From IMG/VR virus record IMGVR_UViG_3300009448_000011, positions 41,688-105,687 of that record: a stretch of 64,000 bases of DNA; one strand, 5' to 3'. The stretch is from a virus. Numbering within the stretch: the stretch's first letter is position 1; each line of letters begins with the position of its first letter. The notes under the pieces were generated by a model, which made no database searches, was not told the origin of the DNA, and worked only from the letters and a program-made list of their open reading frames with translations. Positions 16,094 through 41,305 of the stretch are shown here, piece after piece. The translations under genes and the position numbers were made by a program.

Positions 16094-16123
16094 TTGACAT
16101 ACTAAGTTATGGTATGTTATACT
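16094..16123 (+). promoter_or_regulatory. Sigma-70 promoter of cassette copy 1
   Basis: TTGACA at 16094-16099, an 18-nt spacer and TATACT at 16118-16123. A start near 16130 leaves the ATG at 16148 of ORF A with an AAGGA ribosome site. The other three cassette copies have matching promoters. Confidence 0.8.
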
Positions 16124-16147
16124 TTAAAAAAGGAAAAAGAGAATAGA

Positions 16148-16732
16148 ATGAATTTAGAAACTTGTCAAAACTTAAGCTTGATAATAGAAAAAGACCAAAC
16201 AATTGAAGTAATTGAAATTTGGGCAAAAGTATTATATATAAGAAGAAGCAAAGGAAGAAATTCATTTTATTCGAAGAAAGGAATAACAAAAGAAACAGAA
16301 GGAATATTTTGTAATAACTTAAAAGTTTCAGAAAATTATAAAAGCCTTTTTAAAAAATACCACCCCGATTTAAACAAAGGAAAAGAAAGTTATGTTGACA
16401 TTTCAAAAAACATTAATAGATGGAAAAACTTATTACTTGAGAGTGGACAAAGAGAGTTTGATCAACAATTATATACAGAGCTTATTGAGTTTTGTGGACC
16501 ACTCACATCCATTTTCACTATTGGAACCAGAGCAAGTTTTATCGCAAAACAAACGTGCGGATCTATCAACATCCCTCAATTTAGTTCTGAACAGGAATTT
16601 GTTGAGTGGAAAGCAGCGCCAAAGCAAGTTGCTTCCAGGCAAGCGTTCCTTGATAGCCAACTTACTAGAGCTCAAATCATCAAAAAGTACGGTAAATCCT
16701 ACTATGATTATGAAAGAGATCTTCCTTTTTAA
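16148..16732 (+). CDS. Cassette ORF A, copy 1 (HPD-motif protein)
   Basis: 194 aa from the ATG at 16148; an earlier in-frame ATG lies in the promoter. It belongs to a four-copy family in this window: an N-terminal block (ETCQNL.LIIEKD...EVIEIWAKVLYIRR.KGR..F.SKKGIT) followed by YKSLFKKYHPDLNKG...ISKNINRWKNLL. The latter resembles helix II, HPD loop and helix III of a J-domain. The region from about residue 82 overlaps ORF B and ends ERDLPF. Function unknown; it may partner or fuse with the nuclease encoded by B. Confidence 0.75.
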   Translation: MNLETCQNLSLIIEKDQTIEVIEIWAKVLYIRRSKGRNSFYSKKGITKETEGIFCNNLKVSENYKSLFKKYHPDLNKGKESYVDISKNINRWKNLLLESGQREFDQQLYTELIEFCGPLTSIFTIGTRASFIAKQTCGSINIPQFSSEQEFVEWKAAPKQVASRQAFLDSQLTRAQIIKKYGKSYYDYERDLPF

Positions 16733-17138
16733 TCCTGACCAGGACACTATAATACGTCCTTACGGATTAGAAAAAAATCAAATGTATAGTAATTATATGC
16801 CAACGGGCAAAGAAAGCAAAAATTATTTAAGGAGTTACATTAATAAAGCAGAATCTTTAGGGATCAAAGTCAAAGCTTTCAATTTTAACATTTGCGGTCC
16901 TGTTGTCACACAAGAAGCTATTGAATTCGCCAATTACATGAATATTGCAATTAAAGAATTAAATGGAGTGAAAATACAAATCAATGTATTCACTTTGGAA
17001 CAATTAATCAAAGAATTAATGACAAATATAAATGGAAACAAATGGTTCATCACTTCGCAAGTTCCAAGTATATGCTGGGGAAAAGATCAGGTACAATATT
17101 TAATTTCAGAAAAAAAAGCTATATTAACAGAAAGTTAA
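16392..17138 (+). CDS. Cassette ORF B, copy 1 (PD-(D/E)XK-like nuclease, free-standing)
   Basis: 248 aa. It starts inside ORF A in the +1 frame, preceded by AAAGGA. Conserved family features are FQKTLIDGKTYYL, HPFSLLE, KRADLSTSLNLVL and LLELKSSK, giving an Asp...Glu-X-Lys nuclease signature, though RAD replaces the RPD of the other copies. The C-terminal half (KESKNYLRSYI, GPVV, LEQLI, NKWFI) is conserved across copies. This copy is not inside an intron: it lies between the clamp start and the end of a convergent gene. Confidence 0.75.
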   Translation: MLTFQKTLIDGKTYYLRVDKESLINNYIQSLLSFVDHSHPFSLLEPEQVLSQNKRADLSTSLNLVLNRNLLSGKQRQSKLLPGKRSLIANLLELKSSKSTVNPTMIMKEIFLFNPDQDTIIRPYGLEKNQMYSNYMPTGKESKNYLRSYINKAESLGIKVKAFNFNICGPVVTQEAIEFANYMNIAIKELNGVKIQINVFTLEQLIKELMTNINGNKWFITSQVPSICWGKDQVQYLISEKKAILTES

Positions 17139-17957: not shown

Positions 17958-19220
17958 ATGATAGTTAGAGAAGCCAAGCTAAAATACGGTACAGCAGAGC
18001 AATATTCTGCCATTGATAAAGCCATCCGAACAGCACAGTTCATTCGGAACAAAGCCGTTCGCTATTGGATGGACAATCAAGGTACGAGTAAAGCCGATCT
18101 GTACAGTATCTGCAAAGACTTGGCTAAAGAGTTTGACTTTGCTAAAAAGCTTAACTCCGCTGCTCGTCAGGCTAGTGCTGAACGTGCTTGGGTTGCTATC
18201 TCTAGCTTCTACACCCGATGCAAAAAGCGGCTCACTCCAGTTGGGTCTCCCAACCATGGAAGTAAGACAAAACAAGGCGTAGGCAAGAAAGGTTTTCCAA
18301 AGTTTAAGAAACATTGTCGTTCTGTTGAGTATAAGGTTTCAGGATGGAAACTATCGAAAGATTGCAAATCGATCGCATTCACTGATGGTTTTGAGATTGG
18401 AACATTATCGATATTTTGCAACAATGAAACTCAAGAAGACTTGCATAGGCTGAAAATTAATCGTGTGCGGATCGTGCGGAGAGCAGACGGGTATTATGCC
18501 CAATTCTGTTTTGATGCAGATCGTAAAGAGCAAGGGGAATATTCAGGCAATGTTGTCGGATTGGATTTAGGGTTGAAGTTTTTCACCAAAGACCAAAACG
18601 ATAATGCTGTAATATATCCACAGTTCTTGAGAAAGGCCCAGATGCAACTCAAGAAAACTCAACGTCGATTAAGCAAGAAATTTGTGAAGGGTGCCAAACC
18701 CCAATCAAACAACTACCACAAGGCGCAAAAACAACTAGGAAGAATTCATCTCAAAATTCAACGCCAGCGAAAAGATTGGGCGATAAAAGCCGCCCGAAAC
18801 GTAGTGATATCTAACGATGTCGTGGTGTATGAAAATTTGAAGATTGCGAACATGGTCAAAAATCATCATTTGGCTAAGTCAATTTCCGATGCTGGTTGGT
18901 ATCAATACACTCAATGGCTGGACTACTATGGCAAGATTTGGGATAAAGCAGTTGTGGCAGTATCGCCAAACTATACGTCTCAAGATTGCTCTAATTGCGG
19001 TCATCGAGTGAAAAAGTCTCTTAGTACCAGAACGCACTCATGCCCCAACTGCAAAATTGAAATTTGTCGCGATACGAATGCGGCTTTGAATATCTTGCAC
19101 AAGGGATTGAACATTCTTGGTGTTGAGTGGGACAAAAACAGTACTTCTGGGCAAGAAGGATCTGCCTCTGAGAATGAGGGAAAGCGCGGGGAGAGATGTA
19201 CCTCTACAGTCGATGAGTAA
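17958..19220 (+). CDS. tnpB: TnpB RNA-guided nuclease (IS200/IS605 family)
   Basis: 420 aa. RuvC-like catalytic motifs are complete: GLDLGLKFF (Asp), VVYENLKIANM (Glu) and CRDTNAALNIL (Asp). The zinc finger CSNCG...CPNC sits between the last two. TnpB proteins use an RNA from the element's right end to cut DNA at the donor or target site. Codon usage and GC content differ sharply from the phage genes, indicating recent acquisition, probably from a cyanobacterium. The ORF shows no damage. Confidence 0.93.
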   Translation: MIVREAKLKYGTAEQYSAIDKAIRTAQFIRNKAVRYWMDNQGTSKADLYSICKDLAKEFDFAKKLNSAARQASAERAWVAISSFYTRCKKRLTPVGSPNHGSKTKQGVGKKGFPKFKKHCRSVEYKVSGWKLSKDCKSIAFTDGFEIGTLSIFCNNETQEDLHRLKINRVRIVRRADGYYAQFCFDADRKEQGEYSGNVVGLDLGLKFFTKDQNDNAVIYPQFLRKAQMQLKKTQRRLSKKFVKGAKPQSNNYHKAQKQLGRIHLKIQRQRKDWAIKAARNVVISNDVVVYENLKIANMVKNHHLAKSISDAGWYQYTQWLDYYGKIWDKAVVAVSPNYTSQDCSNCGHRVKKSLSTRTHSCPNCKIEICRDTNAALNILHKGLNILGVEWDKNSTSGQEGSASENEGKRGERCTSTVDE

Positions 19221-19900: not shown

Positions 19901-20503
19901 TCATTTAGCGGCCCAACTAGTACCCAATTTACATTCTGCTTTAGAAGGAAAATCAGGCACTAATTTATGTAATAATTCATCCATTGCTTTTTTCATTCCT
20001 AATTCTTGTGCAGCAGCATATTCATAAGAAATATCTTGAAATTTATATTCAGGAATATAAACTTCCCCATCTTTTCTTACATTTACTACTTCACCTTGTC
20101 CAGGGATATAAGTAATACATTCATCATGAACTAAGCCTACGATATAGCCTGGAGAAGAATGTTGTTTATACTTAGTATTAAGCTGAGTAAAAAACTGATC
20201 GATATAATGTGCGGCGCGTTTTGTCATAATACTAGAAAGGCCTTGTATAATGGTATTACAACCTTTACGCATAGTAGCGCCATCATTTTCTATTCCGTGA
20301 GCATTACCTTCGCCAACGAAATAGCGTCTATTTGTTATAGGACATTGTACCCATTTTTGATATCTAGCCAAAGAACTAGTATTATCAATATAGACTTGCA
20401 ATTCTGGAAATAAATTAAAATAGTTTTTAAGAAGTTGTTCAGCAACCTTAATATCTATTTGAAGAGCGGTAGAAATTCTATTAGCACTTCCACCATAAAT
20501 TAC
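19901..20503 (-). CDS. Family A DNA polymerase, C-terminal part, exon 3
   Basis: 200 codons encoding the end of the polymerase fingers/palm. The exon starts at VIYGGSANRIS, the second half of motif B, and contains motif C GLVHDECITYIPG. Open reading extends upstream (to 20563) into intron sequence, but the splice point is set by joining ...KVCGFT to VIYGGSA. It ends WAAK-stop. Together with the exons at 21788-22051 and 23374-23460 it would make a 317-residue polypeptide. Confidence 0.88.
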   Translation of the reverse strand, partial: VIYGGSANRISTALQIDIKVAEQLLKNYFNLFPELQVYIDNTSSLARYQKWVQCPITNRRYFVGEGNAHGIENDGATMRKGCNTIIQGLSSIMTKRAAHYIDQFFTQLNTKYKQHSSPGYIVGLVHDECITYIPGQGEVVNVRKDGEVYIPEYKFQDISYEYAAAQELGMKKAMDELLHKLVPDFPSKAECKLGTSWAAK

Positions 20504-20556
20504 CTTAAACCCTAAATTTTCATCTAGGTTTGGACTATACCTTTTAATGTAATTAT

Positions 20557-20586
20557 TTGACATACATTAAAACACCGTGTTATAAT
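20557..20586 (+). promoter_or_regulatory. Sigma-70 promoter of cassette copy 2
   Basis: TTGACA at 20557-20562, an 18-nt spacer and TATAAT at 20581-20586, antisense to the intron and just beside its S element. Confidence 0.82.
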
Positions 20587-20613
20587 TAGTATAACAAAGA
20601 AACATTTTAGATA

Positions 20614-21192
20614 ATGGACATACAAACAGCGGCGAATTTACAAGAATTAATAGAACAAGATCCTTTAATAGAATTAATCGAAATATGGGATAAAGTTTTA
20701 TACATAAGAAAAGTAAAAGGCCGAGGAAGGTTTCATACTAAAAAAAATATTACTTTGTTAAAAAGTGGAATATACATCAATACAAAATATATACTCCAAG
20801 AATACAAAAGACTTCAAAAAAAATATCACCCTGATTTAAACAAAGGAAAAAAAAATTATGTTGAAATTTCAAAAAGCATTAATCAATGGAAAGACTTATT
20901 ATTTGAATGTGACGAAAGAGAACTCAATAGAACAGTATATCAGTTACTTATTACAACATGTGGACCGCTCACATCCATTTTCAGCATTGGAAAATCAGCA
21001 GACTTTATTTGGGGGCAAGAGGCCGGATTTCTCCACATCCCTAGATTTAATTCTGAACAGGAATTCAAGGAATGGAAAATTCCCTTTAGGAATTGGGCGG
21101 AAAAACTCGATGATTGCCGATTGCCTAGAAGTAAAAGGAAGTTCTCAGATGTTGAGCACTACGGAGTTAATGAAAGAGATCTTCCTTTTTGA
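20614..21192 (+). CDS. Cassette ORF A, copy 2 (HPD-motif protein)
   Basis: 192 aa, aligning throughout with copy 1: QTAANLQELIEQD, ELIEIWDKVLYIRKVKGRGRF, YKRLQKKYHPDLNKG, VEISKSINQWKDLLFE, and after the ORF B start SIFSIG, RFNSEQEFKEWK and the C-terminus NERDLPF. The J-domain-like HPD element is intact. It lies antisense within the polA motif B intron. The stop falls in the sequence that codes MKEIFLF in ORF B. Confidence 0.75.
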   Translation: MDIQTAANLQELIEQDPLIELIEIWDKVLYIRKVKGRGRFHTKKNITLLKSGIYINTKYILQEYKRLQKKYHPDLNKGKKNYVEISKSINQWKDLLFECDERELNRTVYQLLITTCGPLTSIFSIGKSADFIWGQEAGFLHIPRFNSEQEFKEWKIPFRNWAEKLDDCRLPRSKRKFSDVEHYGVNERDLPF

Positions 21193-21589
21193 TGCAGCAG
21201 AAACTATTGTTCCTACTTATGATGTTTCTATGTCTGATTTTCAATCTCAATATTTTCCATTGGGGAAAGAAAGCAAGAATTATTTCAGAAGTTATGTGCA
21301 GGAAGCACTTAATAGAGGCATCAAAGTGAAATCATTTACTTTTTGGTTTGCGGGCCCTCTAGTGTCTATTGAAGCCATCAAATTTTCTATTTATTGGAAT
21401 CGCGTGATCAAACAAATAGGTGGAATTCAAGTAGAAATCAAAGTTTTGTCTTTGGAACAATTAATTAATTACATCATTTCCAATATTCCAACAAAAAAAT
21501 GGTATGTATTAAATCAACATCCTTCTGTTTGTATGAGTAGAGCGCAGGTTGAAGCTCTAATAGAAGCTCAACTAGCCATTTTAGTATAA
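20858..21589 (+). CDS. Cassette ORF B, copy 2 (PD-(D/E)XK-like homing nuclease)
   Basis: 243 aa, starting 244 nt inside ORF A in the +1 frame with AAAGGA upstream. FQKALINGKTYYL, HPFSALE, GKRPDFSTSLDLIL and ADCLEVKGSS give a textbook RPD...E-V-K PD-(D/E)XK arrangement. The C-terminal half is conserved (GKESKNYFRSYV, GPLV, LEQLI, TKKWYV). Its place inside a group I intron makes a homing endonuclease role likely; cyanobacterial I-Ssp6803I is a precedent for this fold in homing. Confidence 0.78.
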   Translation: MLKFQKALINGKTYYLNVTKENSIEQYISYLLQHVDRSHPFSALENQQTLFGGKRPDFSTSLDLILNRNSRNGKFPLGIGRKNSMIADCLEVKGSSQMLSTTELMKEIFLFDAAETIVPTYDVSMSDFQSQYFPLGKESKNYFRSYVQEALNRGIKVKSFTFWFAGPLVSIEAIKFSIYWNRVIKQIGGIQVEIKVLSLEQLINYIISNIPTKKWYVLNQHPSVCMSRAQVEALIEAQLAILV

Positions 21590-21616
21590 TCTTTTAATAT
21601 CTAATTATCTTTAAGT

Positions 21617-21650
21617 CGCCTTGTACATTAATGTATTTAGGCGTTTTTTA
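21617..21650 (+). terminator. Terminator of cassette copy 2
   Basis: CGCCT...AGGCG stem with an inner TACAT/ATGTA pairing, followed by TTTTTT, 27 nt after the ORF B stop. Confidence 0.8.
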
Positions 21651-21787
21651 TTATGTATTCTTAAAAGTCTCTGAACCATTTTATAAACTTTCATTTATAG
21701 CTGGCTGCTGATTGACATATAGTATTTTTTAAACTACTTAGTGTTCCAGCAATTGAGTGTTTTTTACTTCACCATAATTTACAATTT

Positions 21788-22051
21788 AGTGAAGCCGCAG
21801 ACTTTACCACGGTCTCTTCTTGTCCATCCATTCATATCTTTTTTAGCTTCTTTAATAACATTCCATTTAGGAACAGTAGCTAATTCAGGGTACATTCCAA
21901 TAGCCGAAACTACATGAAGATCCCCGTCAGGATTAGGATATGTTTCTTTTGTATGTGGATTAATAAGAAAGGGATTATGCACTTCGGCATCGAAAAACGC
22001 ATTAATCATTCTCTCTATTTTTGCTATACAAGCAATAGCTCTTACTTCTTG
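21788..22051 (-). CDS. Family A DNA polymerase, C-terminal part, exon 2
   Basis: 88 codons, from Q-E-V-R-A-I-A-C-I (directly after motif A DYSA) to RRDRGKVCGFT (first half of motif B; the Arg and Lys bind the incoming dNTP). Splicing joins DYSA to QEVRAIA and CGFT to VIYGGSA, restoring both motifs in frame. It includes the expected O-helix region and the ELATVPKW segment. There is no start codon of its own at the exon edge, supporting splicing rather than separate translation. Confidence 0.85.
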
Positions 22052-22271
22052 CAATATAGTTTTATTCTATACTGGCACTACTCTTCACCATCTCTATTAA
22101 GTACAGGTGTTTTACGTCAGTGCTCTACTCTTGCCCAATTAATATAATAGAATAATAGTTCTAATTAATTTGCTAGATCGGGATTAGTTTACTATCACTT
22201 TCCCCGAATTGGTAAAATATTTTTTATACTATTTCTAATATAAACGACCCTTTTTTATTGTATTTATTTGT

Positions 22272-22300
22272 TTGACATTCAGCCATATAAGAGATACAAT
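22272..22300 (+). promoter_or_regulatory. Sigma-70 promoter of cassette copy 3
   Basis: TTGACA at 22272-22277, a 17-nt spacer and TACAAT at 22295-22300, 28 nt before the ORF A start. Confidence 0.78.
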
Positions 22301-22327
22301 AAAAAAAAGACAAAAAACAAATAAGGT

Positions 22328-22900
22328 ATGGATGCTCAAACTTGTAGAAACCTACAAACATTAATTGATAAAGATAATAATATTGAACTCATAGAAATAT
22401 GGGCCAAGGTACTTTATCTAAGAATGAAAAAAGGAAAAAACAAGTTTTGCAGTAAAAAAGGAATAACTAATTTAAGCTCAGGAATTTATTTAAACTTAAC
22501 TAACTTTAAAAATGAATACACAAAATTGCAACGAAAATATCACCCAGACAAAAATGCAAAACATTTTGAAATTTCAAAAGGTATTAATCAATGGAAAGCA
22601 TTTATATTTGAATGTGACAAACGAGAACTTAATAGAACAGAACTTAATACATTACTTGAATCATGTCCCCCCAACACATCCTTATTCTCTCTTAGAGAAC
22701 CAGCAAGTTATTTACAACAACAAGAGACCGGACTTTTCAACCACCTTGACGACATTGCCAGGCACTATTGGGCCACTGTTACGCCTAAGCAAAGAGCTGA
22801 GGCAGAAGCTAGGGAAGAAGAATGGCTTGCTCGTCGATGTGGTAGAAACAAAGATGGAAGTAAATACGTCGACCCTTATGAAGGAACTTGTCCCTTTTAA
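22328..22900 (+). CDS. Cassette ORF A, copy 3 (HPD-motif protein)
   Basis: 190 aa with an AAGG ribosome site at the ATG. It matches the other copies over the N-terminal part (CRNLQTLIDKDNNIELIEIW, LYLRMKKGKNKFCSKKGIT, YTKLQRKYHPDKN, FEISKGINQWKAF). The C-terminal part is closest to copy 4 (GRNKDGSKYVDPYEGTCPF against GRDKEGNKIRDTYDGTLPF). Copies 3 and 4 form one subgroup, 1 and 2 another. Confidence 0.75.
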   Translation: MDAQTCRNLQTLIDKDNNIELIEIWAKVLYLRMKKGKNKFCSKKGITNLSSGIYLNLTNFKNEYTKLQRKYHPDKNAKHFEISKGINQWKAFIFECDKRELNRTELNTLLESCPPNTSLFSLREPASYLQQQETGLFNHLDDIARHYWATVTPKQRAEAEAREEEWLARRCGRNKDGSKYVDPYEGTCPF

Positions 22901-23300
22901 AGAAGATGCACAACAATTTGTTGATTCATCTTTTAGAAAGGAACAATTTACTTTTAATGCAGAACGCGTTGTCAATTATAAATGTTACATAAGCAATTAT
23001 GTGAAAGCTGTTCAACAAAAAAAAGGTAAAGTAAAACAAATTACTTTTGCTTTTGTAGCTCCAAAAATAACAGTAGATGCATATGAATTGGCGTGGATTT
23101 TAACACATAGTCCAATTTACAATAATATTGGTGGCGTTAAAATCATAGTAGAATTATATACATTAGAAGCTTTTATCGAAAAACTGATTAATATAATCCC
23201 AGCCAATAAATGGTTCATTAAAAGTTCAATTCCTTTTAATTGTGTAAATGGGAGAGATGTAGATCTTCTAGTTAAAGAAAATAGAGCTATTATTATTTAA
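22512..23300 (+). CDS. Cassette ORF B, copy 3 (PD-(D/E)XK-like homing nuclease)
   Basis: 262 aa from the ATG at 22512, which aligns with the start in copy 4; the in-frame ATG at 22554 would give 248 aa. Nuclease motif: KRPDFSTTL...LLVDVVETKMEV (Asp and Glu-X-Lys). The C-terminal segment GPKI-like APKITVDA, LEAFIEKLI and ANKWFIK matches the family. It lies in the +1 frame relative to ORF A, as in all copies. Confidence 0.75.
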   Translation: MNTQNCNENITQTKMQNILKFQKVLINGKHLYLNVTNENLIEQNLIHYLNHVPPTHPYSLLENQQVIYNNKRPDFSTTLTTLPGTIGPLLRLSKELRQKLGKKNGLLVDVVETKMEVNTSTLMKELVPFKEDAQQFVDSSFRKEQFTFNAERVVNYKCYISNYVKAVQQKKGKVKQITFAFVAPKITVDAYELAWILTHSPIYNNIGGVKIIVELYTLEAFIEKLINIIPANKWFIKSSIPFNCVNGRDVDLLVKENRAIII

Positions 23301-23329
23301 TTTATTTATTTTTTATCTTTAGTAATAAA

Positions 23330-23360
23330 CTCAGTATATAGGTGTATACTGAGTTTCAAT
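23330..23360 (+). terminator. Probable terminator of cassette copy 3
   Basis: Nine-bp stem CTCAGTATA/TATACTGAG followed by a weak T-rich stretch. On the other strand the same stem lies at the 5' end of the intron and may be part of its fold. Confidence 0.5.
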
Positions 23361-23373
23361 TTATATTTAGTTA

Positions 23374-23460
23374 AGCCGAGTAATCACTAATACCCACACA
23401 CATACCTTTAGGCGCCGCACCTAAAGCTTTTCTTACCGTTGTTGTAATTTCATATGACAT
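23374..23460 (-). CDS. Family A DNA polymerase, C-terminal part, exon 1
   Basis: 29 codons from an ATG at 23458-23460. After MSYEITT it reads VRKALGAAPKGMCVGISDYSA, the strand leading into polymerase motif A (DYSxxE, catalytic Asp). The reading stops one codon into the intron. A start codon directly before the conserved VRKAL suggests that the C-terminal half of the polymerase is a separate polypeptide, made after splicing of two introns. Confidence 0.75.
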
Positions 23461-23522
23461 ATTTAATTTTAAATTTGGTTTAATTAATGAAAAAGAATAA
23501 ATAGCAATAGAATTAAAATATT

Positions 23523-23864
23523 TTAAACAATATTATGTTTCAACAAAACAAGAATGATTTGTTTAATAATATCGCCATGACAATCATTAGGTTTGCACCA
23601 ACAAGCAAGTTTAAAATCTACCCCTTTTTTTTCTAATTGAGCTAAGCGAATCAATTCATCATAAACAGAGCCTTTTTTCAAAGAATACATTTGAAGAATC
23701 CAGGCCTTATAGAGCTGTAGACTTTCTGCAAGAGTTCTATTATGTCTAACTGCATAAGGATTATTTAAAGGGCTAGCTTTTAAATTGTAATAAGCATTTT
23801 TACGGCCAATGTAGATAATATCTTCGCCAACAAATCCGTCTTTTTTCCCATTGATAATGTGCAT
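23523..23864 (-). CDS. DUF4326-like protein inserted in the polymerase gene
   Basis: Start taken at the ATG at 23862-23864 (MHIINGKKDG), 113 aa. IYIGRKN, SPLNNPYAV, LYKAWILQ and LACWCKPNDCHGDII match the small DUF4326 family found in phages and bacteria, whose C-terminal Cys/His (CWC..ND.CHGD) may bind metal. It is a same-strand gene between the two halves of the polymerase, 12-20 nt after the N-terminal half. Biochemical function unknown. Confidence 0.7.
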   Translation of the reverse strand: MHIINGKKDGFVGEDIIYIGRKNAYYNLKASPLNNPYAVRHNRTLAESLQLYKAWILQMYSLKKGSVYDELIRLAQLEKKGVDFKLACWCKPNDCHGDIIKQIILVLLKHNIV

Positions 23865-23883
23865 AGAGTTGTTCAATTAAATA

Positions 23884-25173
23884 TCAAAATTGATGTTGAT
23901 CAATAGAAATAACAGCAAGAGTAGAAGAAACTTGTTGTAAATTAGCAGAGCCACTAGAACTCATGCGACCTGTACTAGAACCTATAGAAGAAAAACCGAC
24001 ATGTACGTTATTAGTAGTACTATTAATAATAGAGTTATACTTCAAACATTCAGACCAAAGTTTACTATATTTTTTATAACGTAACAAATTTTTAATTAAA
24101 TTAATATGACTATATTTAGAAATCAAATAATTCTCATCAAATAAAGGTTCTTTTTCTTCATCAAGGGCTTCTTGTTTTAGTAGATCAAGATATAATTTTA
24201 TTTCATCTGCTTGCAAGCTAGATAAAGAAGCGCCGCCTAATTTAGTCAAATAATCATTAATAAAAGAAACTAAGCCCTTATTATTATTAAGTAAAGTTTT
24301 GACTTTATCAGGAATAACATACTTAAGTTCCCAATGACCTTGAGCATTAAGATCAGTATCAGTATAGATAGTAAAACCTAATTCATGTACTAAATAAGAT
24401 CTATGAAGATTAGTTTGTTCTTCGGCATAAGAAGTAATCTTAGCTAATAGAGAAGTATCGAGACACATGCCGTAATATTCCATTTTTGCACAAATAACAG
24501 TAGCTTGCTGATCTGATTCGTATGCAAATTGTTGATGAAGAAGATCAAGTTGAGTTTTAAATAAATAATAACCTTCAATTAATATAGAATTAATAGAAGA
24601 AAGTTTAGGAGCGCCAACATCTAAAGCGGCATAACCTAATTGGCTAGTAGTTAAAGGTCGTTCACCCCAAGAACTAGTAGCTTCACTTTTATCGAGATGG
24701 ATATCAAAATAATCCCTTGCTAAATCTTTAAGACCATGGCCTCTAAATATAGAAGCTTTCATTCCTGTAGTAATGGCCAAACTTTTCATTAAAGTCAAAG
24801 AACAAACAGTATTAACGGGCCAGGATTTAAACTCGTTATAAAATTGTTTTAAATCAAATTGACTATAGTGAAGTATTTTTAATATATTTTCATTAAGCAA
24901 TACTTTTGTATTAAATAAAGATTTAGCAGAAGAACTCAATAATATAAAATCTAAAATATAAGGAATAGAATGATTTATACTATTTAATTGAACTAAAGAT
25001 ATTTTAGAACTATGAGGATCCAAAGCACTAGGATTTACTTTAGATAAATCAATCATAGTTTCAGTATCCAGTGCAATTTCCTTACTTTCTACACAAAAAT
25101 CAATTATTGCCTCTATATCTTTATCTTCTGTTACATAATAAATATCAATTTCCGCTGTTTCTATTAATTTCAT
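23884..25173 (-). CDS. Family A DNA polymerase, N-terminal polypeptide (exonuclease and thumb)
   Basis: 429 aa. 3'-5' exonuclease motifs: ALDTET (I), ILHYSQFDLKQFY (II) and GYAALDVGAPKL (III). The thumb follows, then the start of the palm with IGSSTGRMSSSGSANLQQV, the conserved template-binding stretch before motif A. It then departs from the family (SSTLAVISIDQHQF) and stops. With the 317-residue C-terminal product, the total is 746 residues, close to one-piece T7-type polymerases (about 700). The enzyme therefore seems to be split between the NLQ and motif A blocks. Confidence 0.88.
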   Translation of the reverse strand: MKLIETAEIDIYYVTEDKDIEAIIDFCVESKEIALDTETMIDLSKVNPSALDPHSSKISLVQLNSINHSIPYILDFILLSSSAKSLFNTKVLLNENILKILHYSQFDLKQFYNEFKSWPVNTVCSLTLMKSLAITTGMKASIFRGHGLKDLARDYFDIHLDKSEATSSWGERPLTTSQLGYAALDVGAPKLSSINSILIEGYYLFKTQLDLLHQQFAYESDQQATVICAKMEYYGMCLDTSLLAKITSYAEEQTNLHRSYLVHELGFTIYTDTDLNAQGHWELKYVIPDKVKTLLNNNKGLVSFINDYLTKLGGASLSSLQADEIKLYLDLLKQEALDEEKEPLFDENYLISKYSHINLIKNLLRYKKYSKLWSECLKYNSIINSTTNNVHVGFSSIGSSTGRMSSSGSANLQQVSSTLAVISIDQHQF

Positions 25174-38715: not shown

Positions 38716-39507
38716 TTAAACAGATATTAAATCACTAAAAGCTTGCATATGTTCTTTGCGCATTGCTTTATATGCCTCAGACTTACCAATTTTGTAGGGT
38801 AGTTTTTTATTATCTATTTTTTGTGCTTTACTAAATAGAGTAATCACACTTGTCACTAAAATTTCTTTACGAGGTAAATTATCTTCAATACTTCCTAATA
38901 CATTAAATACATAACATGCCGCTATAAATTCTTCTTCTGTTTTACAATACGACGGTAATGAATAACTTAATCCATATAAACCAGTTATTTTAGTAGGAAG
39001 AATATTTTTAATTAAGCGATCATCTTGGAGGACACCTAGACGAATATATTCAGACATAGGGGCAAGGCTAGCTAATTCTTCAATAACAAAAAAGAATTCA
39101 TGAGCAGTAGCGGCGCCTAAAAGACCTGGTAAAATAATTTTTAATTGTTGTTCATCAGTAATTTTCTCCATAATATTGGAACATTTTTCCCATGAACGGC
39201 TAGAAGGATTAATTTTATCATCATTATCTGCGACTGATTTAAAACCTTCGTCAAGAAATTCAGGACGAGCTCTTAAAAAAGCTTTAATAGAAGGAATAAT
39301 AGGGCGGCCGTTTTCTGCGCGATGGGCTTCCCATTTTAACCAAGCATTTACAGAAGTCATTACGTCAAAATGAATAAAACGATCTGAGATAGCACTAGAT
39401 AACTCATAGGCTATAGCACCATCTTCTACTCTATTTCCTGCTGCAATAATCATTACATTATCAGGAACTTTATATTTATCAATTTTTCTATCTAATATTA
39501 ATTCGTA
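38716..39507 (-). CDS. MoxR-like AAA+ ATPase, exon 2
   Basis: 263 codons beginning YELILDRKIDKYKVPDNVMIIAAGN (sensor 1) and continuing through DRFIHFDV, the arginine-finger region typical of MoxR proteins. An in-frame ATG 8 codons upstream lies in intron sequence. Joined to exon 1 it gives a 385-aa ATPase that would act with the VWA protein. Confidence 0.88.
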   Translation of the reverse strand, partial: YELILDRKIDKYKVPDNVMIIAAGNRVEDGAIAYELSSAISDRFIHFDVMTSVNAWLKWEAHRAENGRPIIPSIKAFLRARPEFLDEGFKSVADNDDKINPSSRSWEKCSNIMEKITDEQQLKIILPGLLGAATAHEFFFVIEELASLAPMSEYIRLGVLQDDRLIKNILPTKITGLYGLSYSLPSYCKTEEEFIAACYVFNVLGSIEDNLPRKEILVTSVITLFSKAQKIDNKKLPYKIGKSEAYKAMRKEHMQAFSDLISV

Positions 39508-39752
39508 CATTAATATACCTTTAATTTTCATTAAAGAACGGAATACATTTTAATCTTTACTATATTTATATAGTATTAAGACTTGGACACTCTAGGTAAA
39601 ATTATAGTCTGTTTAACTTAAGACATCATTTACTACTCTCTACATTATTATTAAACATTACTTTAATAATTAACACGGGATTACCTTATAGTTTCCTACT
39701 TAGGTTTCCCCGTTAGCCTAATCTCTATTTGTTCTTTTTTGATTAAACCCTA

Positions 39753-39781
39753 TTGACTTATTAAAACCAATACATTATAAT
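39753..39781 (+). promoter_or_regulatory. Sigma-70 promoter of cassette copy 4
   Basis: TTGACT at 39753-39758, a 17-nt spacer and TATAAT at 39776-39781, antisense within the intron. Confidence 0.78.
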
Positions 39782-39820
39782 ATATTTAAATACACACACA
39801 TTTACAAATAAGAAATTCAA

Positions 39821-40411
39821 GTGGACATACAAAGTTGTAAAAATCTTCAAGCATTAATTGATAAAGACAATAATATTGAACTCATAGAAATATGGGCTAA
39901 TATATTGTATTTAAGAATGCGAAAAGGAAAAAACAAATTTTGTAGTAAAAAAAGAATAACTAATTTAAAAGAAGGTGTTTATTTAAATATCTATACTTTT
40001 TCTAAAAATGAATACAAACAATTACAGCAAAAATATCACCCTGACACCAGCTCAAAATATTTACACATTTCAAAAAGTCTTAATCAATGGAAAGATTTAT
40101 TATCTAGATGTGACTACAGAGTCCAAAATAGAAGCATATATCTTGACATTGCTGCAACATATTCCAACAACCCATCCATATTCTCTATTGAAAAATCAAT
40201 TAGAATATTCAGTATGGCAAAAGAGGCCCGACTTTTCGACGGACTACTCGAGGATACCGCAGAGTGGGCAGAAGGATGTGATGAAGCCTGGCTCGCTCAA
40301 CAAAGAGCTGAGAGCCAATCTAGGTGGAAAGAATGGTCTAACTGGCAACGTGGTCGAGATAAAGAAGGAAATAAAATTAGAGACACTTATGACGGAACTC
40401 TTCCTTTTTAA
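39821..40411 (+). CDS. Cassette ORF A, copy 4 (HPD-motif protein)
   Basis: 196 aa with a GTG start (GTGGACATACAAAGT, aligned with the ATG starts of the other copies). CKNLQALIDKDNNIELIEIW is almost identical to copy 3. YKQLQQKYHPDTSS and ISKSLNQWKDLL form the J-like element. The C-terminal part is longer and Glu/Trp-rich before YDGTLPF. Function unknown. Confidence 0.73.
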   Translation: MDIQSCKNLQALIDKDNNIELIEIWANILYLRMRKGKNKFCSKKRITNLKEGVYLNIYTFSKNEYKQLQQKYHPDTSSKYLHISKSLNQWKDLLSRCDYRVQNRSIYLDIAATYSNNPSIFSIEKSIRIFSMAKEARLFDGLLEDTAEWAEGCDEAWLAQQRAESQSRWKEWSNWQRGRDKEGNKIRDTYDGTLPF

Positions 40412-40814
40412 TACAGAAGAAGAAGTATTTCTTGCTCCTCTCGGTAAAACTCACGATCAATTTCTAAAAGAAAATCCTATAGAAACTTCTTCATCTAAAA
40501 TGTATATACTTGCCACTAAACTTCATGCACAAAAATTAGGATTTAAACTAAAAAGATTAAATATGACTTTTGTGGCGCCTCTTGTTTCTAACAAAGCATT
40601 ACAATATGAACAATATCATAACAAAGCTATTAAAAATATAGGAGGAATTGCAGTAGATTTAAAAGTATTTACCTTAGAACAATTCATTAATGAATTATTT
40701 ACTTTAATTCCCGACAGTAAATGGTACATAAAAGATAATCATATTCCTTTTATCGCCTTGTCAAAATCTAAAGTAGAAATATTACAAGAAAATAATTTAG
40801 CCGTTATAATGTAA
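40008..40814 (+). CDS. Cassette ORF B, copy 4 (PD-(D/E)XK-like homing nuclease)
   Basis: 268 aa in the +1 frame inside ORF A. FQKVLINGKIYYL, HPYSLL, KRPDFSTDYS and GNVVEIKKEI carry the nuclease signature. The C-terminal half shows APLVSNKAL, LEQFINELF and SKWYIK like the other copies. It lies in the moxR intron, so the expected target is the intronless moxR Walker B-YEL junction. Confidence 0.77.
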   Translation: MNTNNYSKNITLTPAQNIYTFQKVLINGKIYYLDVTTESKIEAYILTLLQHIPTTHPYSLLKNQLEYSVWQKRPDFSTDYSRIPQSGQKDVMKPGSLNKELRANLGGKNGLTGNVVEIKKEIKLETLMTELFLFNTEEEVFLAPLGKTHDQFLKENPIETSSSKMYILATKLHAQKLGFKLKRLNMTFVAPLVSNKALQYEQYHNKAIKNIGGIAVDLKVFTLEQFINELFTLIPDSKWYIKDNHIPFIALSKSKVEILQENNLAVIM

Positions 40815-40832
40815 TCATATTCATTTTTATTT

Positions 40833-40875
40833 AAATCTCTCTTATTGTGTTATTGCTTTAAGAGAGATTTTTATT
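40833..40875 (+). terminator. Terminator of cassette copy 4
   Basis: AATCTCTCTTA/TAAGAGAGATT stem followed by TTTTTATTT, 20 nt after the ORF B stop. Confidence 0.8.
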
Positions 40876-40939
40876 TGGTACGCAATAGTTTGCCCAGTTT
40901 TACTTATATATTTCTATATAAGGTGCCTACGAATATTTA

Positions 40940-41305
40940 AGCACTTGCTTGTAAACGCGGTTCAGCCGCACTTAATTCATCTAGAAAAATAATACAACCT
41001 TCTTTACCCCAACTAGCAATCATTTCTTCTGTTGGTAAAAATTCAGGTAAATAATAAATAGTTTTTTTACTTTCTTGATGTAGATAAGGAAGTCCTGTTA
41101 AATCAGTACTATCCATTCTAGTAAGTCTTAAATCAATTAGCCCCCAATTTAATTCTGTAGCTATTTGTCTTACAATATCAGATTTACCACAACCAGGTTG
41201 TCCATGTATATATACAGCATTTTTACGTAAGTCTGTATCTTTTGCCATTGTTAAAATACAATTTTTAATTAAATCAGGCGTAGTGGGAATAGTATTAATT
41301 GTCAT
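40940..41305 (-). CDS. MoxR-like AAA+ ATPase, exon 1
   Basis: 122 codons: Walker A HGQPGCGKSDIV and Walker B CIIFLDELSAAEPRLQASA, where coding is interrupted by the intron. The TAA read one codon later lies in the intron. AAA+ proteins of this type use ATP to remodel partners through an adjacent VWA protein. Confidence 0.9.

What the first reader, a model, noticed from the sequence alone, without database searches (positions are those of the whole stretch)
23374..23900. Polymerase split into two polypeptides by a DUF4326 gene
After NLQQV the N-terminal half drifts and stops; a complete DUF4326-like gene follows, then an ATG just before VRKALGAA...DYSA. There is no room or sign for a group I core in about 420 nt. 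This suggests a natural two-subunit polymerase, broken between the template-binding NLQ motif and motif A, rather than splicing.
Basis: partly seen in the sequence, partly recalled or inferred. Interest (0 to 1): 0.6.

Follow-up and report, generated by a model that had tools for sequence, protein, structure and literature searches.

The report
Phage DNA polymerase made in halves
A virus, probably of cyanobacteria, makes its DNA-copying enzyme as two separate proteins that most likely dock together, and the same break turns up in several related viruses with unrelated small genes lodged in it, so the break is a lasting feature and not an accident of one inserted gene.

Summary
A family A DNA polymerase (PolA) on the minus strand stops 14 residues after NLQQV (429-aa N-half, 25173-23884). 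A genuine DUF4326 gene follows (23876-23523), and the polymerase resumes at an ATG (23460) before motif A. The C-half (about 318 aa) is itself interrupted at motifs A and B by intron-like inserts.

The same break occurs in cultured Microcystis phage Ma-LMM01 and relatives, annotated as separate "3'-5' exonuclease" and "DNA polymerase", and in further IMG/VR lineages (L017/L018, L038, L039), with different genes in the gap. Ma-LMM01 has no DUF4326 gene, so the break does not depend on DUF4326. In a fused sister the site is the tip of a short beta-hairpin, and each half keeps its strand. No family B or C polymerase was found in the five records checked, and both halves are under purifying selection in Ma-LMM01 relatives.

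Best reading: a two-subunit PolA assembled without splicing (0.85). A split PolA with a small ORF between the halves is published for OM43 phages, cut slightly downstream, so this is a new variant of a known kind. Association and activity are untested.

The parts
23884..25173 (-). N-half of family A DNA polymerase, 429 aa: 3'-5' exonuclease, thumb, start of palm through TGR...NLQQV, plus a 14-residue tail
   Evidence: AlphaFold model pLDDT 86 with tail 416-429 under 50; Foldseek to apicoplast Pol and Klenow
23523..23876 (-). DUF4326 gene (TTG at 23876 or ATG at 23864) lodged between the halves
   Evidence: Pfam PF14216 E 1.5e-13; phrog_464 E 4.9e-18; only copy in the genome record
23374..23460 (-). 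C-half, first exon: ATG start, second hairpin strand (SYEITTTVRKAL) and motif A (ISDYSA)
   Evidence: matches the start of Ma-LMM01 gp178
22052..23373 (-). Intron in motif A (ends approximate), carrying two overlapping ORFs on the opposite strand
   Evidence: its 3' core aligns with introns at the same codon in Ma-LMM01-type contigs L014 and L028; Rfam alone gave no group I hit
21795..22051 (-). C-half, second exon (QEVRAIA...RGKVCG, up to motif B; ends approximate)
20510..21794 (-). Group I intron at motif B (ends approximate), carrying two overlapping ORFs on the opposite strand
   Evidence: Rfam RF00028 on 21666-21751, E 5.9e-5, 25.6 bits, below the gathering score of 50
19901..20509 (-). 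C-half, third exon: rest of motif B, fingers, motif C (VHDE), end of polymerase
   Evidence: PF00476 E 8.7e-18 on the ORF 20563-19901

Best explanation
The polymerase is a natural two-subunit family A enzyme. One gene makes the exonuclease, the thumb and the template-binding start of the palm. A second gene, after two introns are spliced out, makes the catalytic palm (motifs A and C) and the fingers (motif B). The break falls at the tip of a short beta-hairpin that joins the NLQ motif to motif A in fused relatives. Each half keeps its own hairpin strand plus a few extra residues, so the two chains can pair there and rebuild the palm without a covalent join. The gap between the genes has become a slot in which unrelated small genes sit; DUF4326 is the present occupant here. 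Shown: the anatomy, the same break in several lineages, purifying selection on both halves in Ma-LMM01 relatives, and no family B or C polymerase found in the records checked. Inferred: physical association, activity of the pair, and excision of the two introns.
For: Same break in Ma-LMM01: gp180 427 aa, gp179 51 aa, gp178 320 aa. In all 9 Microcystis-phage and MaMV records the two halves lie at separate places. Of 12 IMG/VR loci reached with the N-half, other than L003, 9 are split, 2 fused and 1 cut off by the contig end. L038 (halves about 3.6 kb apart, with an IS605-like element and other genes between) and L039 are further split lineages. Gap contents differ: DUF4326; 51-aa ORF; winged-helix-like ORF (L017, L018, L039); several genes (L038). 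Whole-record searches: PF14216 in 1 of 4 split relatives, not near its polymerase; PF07733 and PF00136 in 0 of 5 records including the window's, also not in cultured Ma-LMM01; the family A matches are the halves themselves. Ma-LMM01 group dN/dS: C-half 0.05-0.21 in 10 of 10 pairs; N-half 0.07-0.13 in 9 of 10. Exo I-III, motif A, motif B and motif C residues are present in the window pieces (motif names recalled). AlphaFold of fused relative L042: pLDDT 90.6; strands 403-404 and 410-411 flank the turn where the others break. Window N-half folds alone (pLDDT 86) with a low-confidence tail. In Ma-LMM01 infection gp178 and gp180 are both middle-phase genes (PMC5780444, passage).
Against: No biochemical or proteomic evidence; association is inferred. 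AlphaFold could not be run on the two chains together. The window lineage is one population, so its own halves could not be tested for selection. One Ma-LMM01 pair (LMM01/DL02, 10 differences) gave N-half dN/dS 0.70. The N-half tree puts the split rows in two places (one-clade AU p 0.025), while the tree of the piece after motif B puts them together, weakly, so one ancient split is not established. Rfam found no intron in the gap, but it also missed the motif A intron, so that negative is weak. Four of the five records searched for other polymerases may be incomplete.
Confidence: 0.85

Rival explanations
1. The gap is an unrecognised intron, cis- or trans-spliced, and a single polymerase chain is made.
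For: The same gene carries intron-like inserts at motifs A and B, and the authors who reported MEP401 considered an intron possible (PMC10580990, passages).
Against: The gap is 423 nt here, of which 354 are a coding gene, and about 120 nt in Ma-LMM01 relatives. In L038 it is about 3.6 kb with other genes. Gap contents are unrelated between lineages. Both halves carry extra coding residues beyond the fused relatives' hairpin, whereas intron-broken exons resume flush. Rfam negative in the gap, weak because it also missed a likely intron.
Confidence: 0.06
2. Protein trans-splicing: a split intein joins the halves.
For: Split PolB with an intein is reported in Pseudomonas phage MIJ3 (PMC6892783, passages).
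Against: Only 14 residues follow NLQQV and 8 precede VRKAL, about 22 in all, too few for any intein I know of (recalled).
Confidence: 0.02
3. Insertion of the DUF4326 gene caused the split, and DUF4326 is part of the system (third subunit or assembly factor).
For: It lies exactly in the gap and in the same direction; it is the only copy in the genome record.
Against: The split exists in Ma-LMM01, L038 and L039 records without any DUF4326 gene and in L018 with one elsewhere. DUF4326 matches 251 of 50,697 phage records, in unrelated phages; in the one whose surroundings I read, Vibrio phage YC, it lies by a homing endonuclease and structural genes. It is proposed to process ADP-ribose phosphates (PMC9503650, passage).
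Confidence: 0.06
4. A dying or broken gene, or an assembly error.
For: Four separate pieces and several stops in the window's polymerase.
Against: Same break in independently sequenced isolates and contigs; purifying selection on both halves; active-site residues kept; no family B or C polymerase found and no other family A one.
Confidence: 0.01

Closest known systems
Split PolA of OM43 phages MEP401/MEP402 (Zobellviridae; PMC10580990, passages read)
   Same: Two ORFs, exo plus N-terminal PolA and then C-terminal PolA, with a small unknown ORF between; seen in most group I relatives
   Different: Cut further downstream, after the conserved R..F strand and just before motif A: gp13 ends NLQNFDGEIKTLFLSRYGE, gp15 starts MILNADAKALEW. 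Far from this clade in sequence. The authors left open whether it is an intron
Microcystis phage Ma-LMM01 gp180/gp178 (Fukuivirus)
   Same: Same break, 33% identical N-half; the nearest named relative
   Different: 51-aa ORF in place of DUF4326; no intron at motif A in the isolate. Named as two separate enzymes in the two papers whose passages I saw (PMC5780444 on Ma-LMM01, PMC9927357 on MaMV-DH01)
Microcystis phage Mic1 DNA polymerase gamma (ORF85/86; PMC7156551, passages read)
   Same: Cyanophage polymerase annotated in two ORFs
   Different: Interrupted inside motif A by a sequence its authors call an intron; matches the window's motif A intron in place, not the split
Split PolB of Pseudomonas phage MIJ3 (PMC6892783, passages read)
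   Same: Phage polymerase in two genes with a gene between
   Different: Family B, with a putative split intein and an HNH homing endonuclease

Membership tests
Family A DNA polymerase (PF00476 with PF01612) | Profile matches in both halves | tested here: met
   N-half exo E 1.6e-21 and PolA E 1e-6 (28.4 bits, below the cut-off alone); last exon PolA E 8.7e-18, above the cut-off
Family A DNA polymerase (PF00476 with PF01612) | Exo I-III and motifs A, B, C present (motif names recalled) | tested here: met
   DTET, FDLKQF, YAALDVG, TGRMSSS..NLQQV, SDYSA, RDRGKV..F, LVHDE
Family A DNA polymerase (PF00476 with PF01612) | Klenow-like fold | tested here: met
   N-half model to apicoplast Pol and Klenow, best E 4.8e-16; fused relative L042 E 3e-28
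Bipartite PolA of the MEP401 kind | Two ORFs with exo/N-PolA and C-PolA and a small ORF between | tested here: met
   in the window the C-half is further interrupted by two introns
Bipartite PolA of the MEP401 kind | Same cut point | tested here: not met
   MEP401 is cut after the R..F strand, the window before it
Bipartite PolA of the MEP401 kind | Subunits associate and polymerise | not testable with these tools
Group I intron in the gap | Catalytic core in the gap | tested here: inconclusive
   no Rfam match to any intron family up to E 5, but Rfam also missed the motif A intron
Group I intron in the gap | Intron-free allele with flush exons | tested here: not met
   no split relative lacks the gap; fused relatives have a hairpin, not flush exons
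Split intein | Intein halves at the broken ends | tested here: not met
   14 and 8 residues only
DUF4326 | Pfam PF14216 above cut-off | tested here: met
   51.7 bits against a cut-off of 25

The most novel reading that the evidence does not exclude
PolA has been cut at the same hairpin tip at least twice within one cyanophage clade, or cut once and re-fused in the Microcoleus-phage branch, and a differently placed cut arose in OM43 phages. The segment between the NLQ motif and motif A is then a natural weak seam of PolA. Keeping the exonuclease/thumb and the catalytic palm/fingers as separate chains is a maintained design, for example to let the exo-thumb chain act alone or to let halves be exchanged, and the seam works as a slot that repeatedly gains small counter-defence or DNA-binding genes.
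Probability: 0.2. Interest if true: 0.7.

Novelty: new variant of a known kind. Interest (0 to 1): 0.47.

Why it matters
It turns a gene that looks broken into a testable two-chain polymerase, shows that 'stand-alone exonuclease' genes of cultured Microcystis phages are most likely the missing half of their polymerase, and marks a place where family A polymerases can be cut in nature, which is useful for reading phage genomes and for anyone wanting a split polymerase.

Tried and rejected
DUF4326 as the cause of the split: rejected on the Ma-LMM01, L038 and L039 records (no copy) and L018 (copy elsewhere). An intron in the gap: rejected mainly on comparative grounds; Rfam on the gap was negative, but that is weak, since Rfam also missed the motif A intron on its own and the related introns in L014/L028 at gathering thresholds. 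Homology between gap genes: blastp linked only the winged-helix-like ORFs of L017/L018 and L039; gp179 and DUF4326 match none of them beyond chance. The winged-helix call rests on Pfam matches below their cut-offs.

Search of bacterial genomes with the N-half: 35 stretches matched a pattern, none a relative. Of the 34 loci reached with the C-half, 9 have 41 aa or fewer open upstream of motif A, 18 are fused by frame, 7 gave no motif A near the match (4 of these lie on the contigs of L014, L015, L017 and L028; 3 were not looked at in that call).

Literature searches for a report of the split in the Ma-LMM01 group; none seen in the listings or in the passages read. The 2008 Ma-LMM01 genome paper is not held, so it may already say so. 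A search for T4-type gp43A/gp43B found nothing; that split is recalled only and not used.

Dropped or partial: the alignment of the junction is unreliable past the NLQ motif for split rows; junctions were compared by eye. Codon comparison of the 51-aa ORF worked for 3 of 10 pairs only, so no claim is made from it.

Full report
WHAT IS THERE. On the minus strand of the window a family A DNA polymerase is spread over four open pieces. The first, 25173-23884, is 429 aa and holds the exonuclease, the thumb and the beginning of the palm, ending NLQQVSSTLAVISIDQHQF and a stop. A DUF4326 gene follows (23876 or 23864 to 23523; Pfam E 1.5e-13). The polymerase resumes at ATG 23460 with MSYEITTTVRKALGAAPKGMCVGISDYSA, which contains motif A. 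The remaining pieces, QEVRAIA...RGKVCG (about 22051-21795) and FKVIYGG...AAK (20509-19901), are separated from it and from each other by two inserts of about 1.3 kb, each with two overlapping ORFs on the opposite strand. The insert at motif B contains a group I core half (Rfam RF00028, E 5.9e-5, below the gathering score). The insert at motif A was not recognised by Rfam, but its 3' core aligns well with introns at exactly the same codon in Ma-LMM01-type contigs L014 and L028.

THE BREAK IS CONSERVED. The N-half finds 12 of 50,697 phage records. Nine are Microcystis phages or the cyanophage MaMV-DH01, and in these the match covers residues 4-429, tail included. In Ma-LMM01 the N-half is gp180 (427 aa, '3'-5' exonuclease'), followed by gp179 (51 aa) and gp178 (320 aa, 'DNA polymerase'). 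In IMG/VR, of 12 loci reached with the N-half other than L003, nine have separate halves, two are fused and one is cut off by the contig end. L017 and L018 carry a winged-helix-like ORF in the gap (Pfam matches below cut-off). Two further split lineages came from the C-half: L039, again with a winged-helix-like ORF (31% identical to that of L018, E 1e-5), and L038, whose halves lie about 3.6 kb apart with several genes between, including what look like IS605 transposase genes (named by eye). Fused relatives exist too: Microcoleus phage My-WqHQDG (L006), Pseudanabaena phage PA-SR01 (L008), L019, L020, L042.

DUF4326 IS A PASSENGER. Searching whole records with PF14216, the window's record has one copy, in the gap. 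Of four split relatives (the Ma-LMM01, L018, L038 and L039 records) only the L018 record has one, at 170 kb, far from its polymerase at about 34 kb. DUF4326 is found in 251 of 50,697 phage records. A paper proposes that it belongs to the rhodanese-phosphatase superfamily and processes ADP-ribose phosphates (PMC9503650, passage). Its presence in the gap therefore needs no link with the polymerase.

WHY TWO SUBUNITS RATHER THAN SPLICING. First, the gaps differ in length (423 nt here; about 120 nt in the Ma-LMM01 group; about 240 nt in L017/L018; 3.6 kb in L038) and in content. Second, nothing is missing. In the fused sister L042 the stretch between QQMS and RAKPG is a short hairpin: AlphaFold puts strands at 403-404 and 410-411 around the turn PSG, at high confidence. 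The split proteins keep a strand-like tail after QQ(I/V)S (STLAVISID; NVELMVDIEED; NKTKVLLDG) and a strand-like head before the motif A region (SYEITTTVRKAL; TKIKMNSRFAL), compared by eye. Third, both halves are under purifying selection in the Ma-LMM01 group: C-half dN/dS 0.05-0.21 in 10 of 10 pairs; N-half 0.07-0.13 in 9 of 10, the tenth (10 differences) being 0.70. Fourth, no polymerase of family B (PF00136) or C (PF07733) was found in any of five records, and the family A matches are the halves themselves; Ma-LMM01 is a cultured phage with a complete genome. The other four records may be incomplete. Fifth, in infection both Ma-LMM01 halves are middle-phase genes (PMC5780444, passage). Active-site residues are intact: all exonuclease residues sit in the N-half, and motifs A, B and C sit in the C-half, while the thumb and template-binding motif sit in the N-half (motif names recalled). 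Neither half should therefore be a full polymerase alone; this last step is inference.

HISTORY. In a tree of N-halves, split rows fall in two places: {window, Ma-LMM01, L009}, sister to fused {My-WqHQDG, L042}, and {L038, L039, L017, L018}, with fused L019/L020 outside. Holding all split rows together is rejected at p 0.025. The tree of the piece after motif B joins all split rows, with weak support (72/89). So either two cuts at one site, or one cut and a re-fusion; the data do not decide. Among 80 more distant relatives none shows the split.

WHAT IS KNOWN. Split PolA with a small ORF between the halves was reported in OM43 phages MEP401/402 and most of their group; the authors thought an intron possible and left it open (PMC10580990, passages). 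There the cut is further downstream, just before motif A. Mic1's two-ORF polymerase is a different case, interrupted within motif A by what its authors call an intron (PMC7156551, passages). In my searches I saw no paper that says gp178 and gp180 of Ma-LMM01 are halves of one polymerase; the 2008 genome paper could not be read. The MaMV-DH01 paper treats the two genes as separate enzymes (PMC9927357, passages).

VERDICT. A real, conserved, bipartite family A polymerase; the DUF4326 gene is incidental. Confidence 0.85 in the two-subunit reading. New variant of a known kind; interest 0.47.

Noticed in passing
window 16109-17138, 20614-21589, 22328-23300, 39821-40814 (+): Four copies of a two-gene module: a J-domain-like ORF (Pfam DnaJ, below cut-off, in the two copies scanned) overlapped in another frame by an ORF that looks like a PD-(D/E)XK nuclease (by eye; no such Pfam hit). 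Two copies lie antisense inside the polymerase introns; perhaps a new homing cassette with overlapping reading frames.
   Followed up: partly
window 38716-41305 (-): An AAA ATPase gene (named by eye) appears interrupted by one of these modules (pieces 41305-40937 and 39531-38716), probably another intron.
   Followed up: no
L014 8467-8973; L028 159-491; L009-L013: Ma-LMM01-type phages are polymorphic for an intron in motif A of the polymerase, at the same codon as the window's intron.
   Followed up: partly
L017 8878-9595 (L018 is uninterrupted there); L017 after about 9965 and L018 after about 9213: L017 has an insert at motif B that L018 lacks, with an HNH-like ORF (by eye); both appear interrupted again just after motif C.
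   Followed up: no
L005 2475-3758 (Ma-LMM01 gp180) and relatives: Annotated as a stand-alone 3'-5' exonuclease; most likely the N-terminal half of the phage's DNA polymerase.
   Followed up: yes
L038 2376-5994: An IS605-like element (by eye) and other genes sit between the polymerase halves, showing that the gap tolerates large insertions.
   Followed up: no
window 17958-19220 (+): Complete TnpB-like (IS605 OrfB) gene just beyond the end of the polymerase; no RNA family found by Rfam at gathering thresholds in the window.
   Followed up: no
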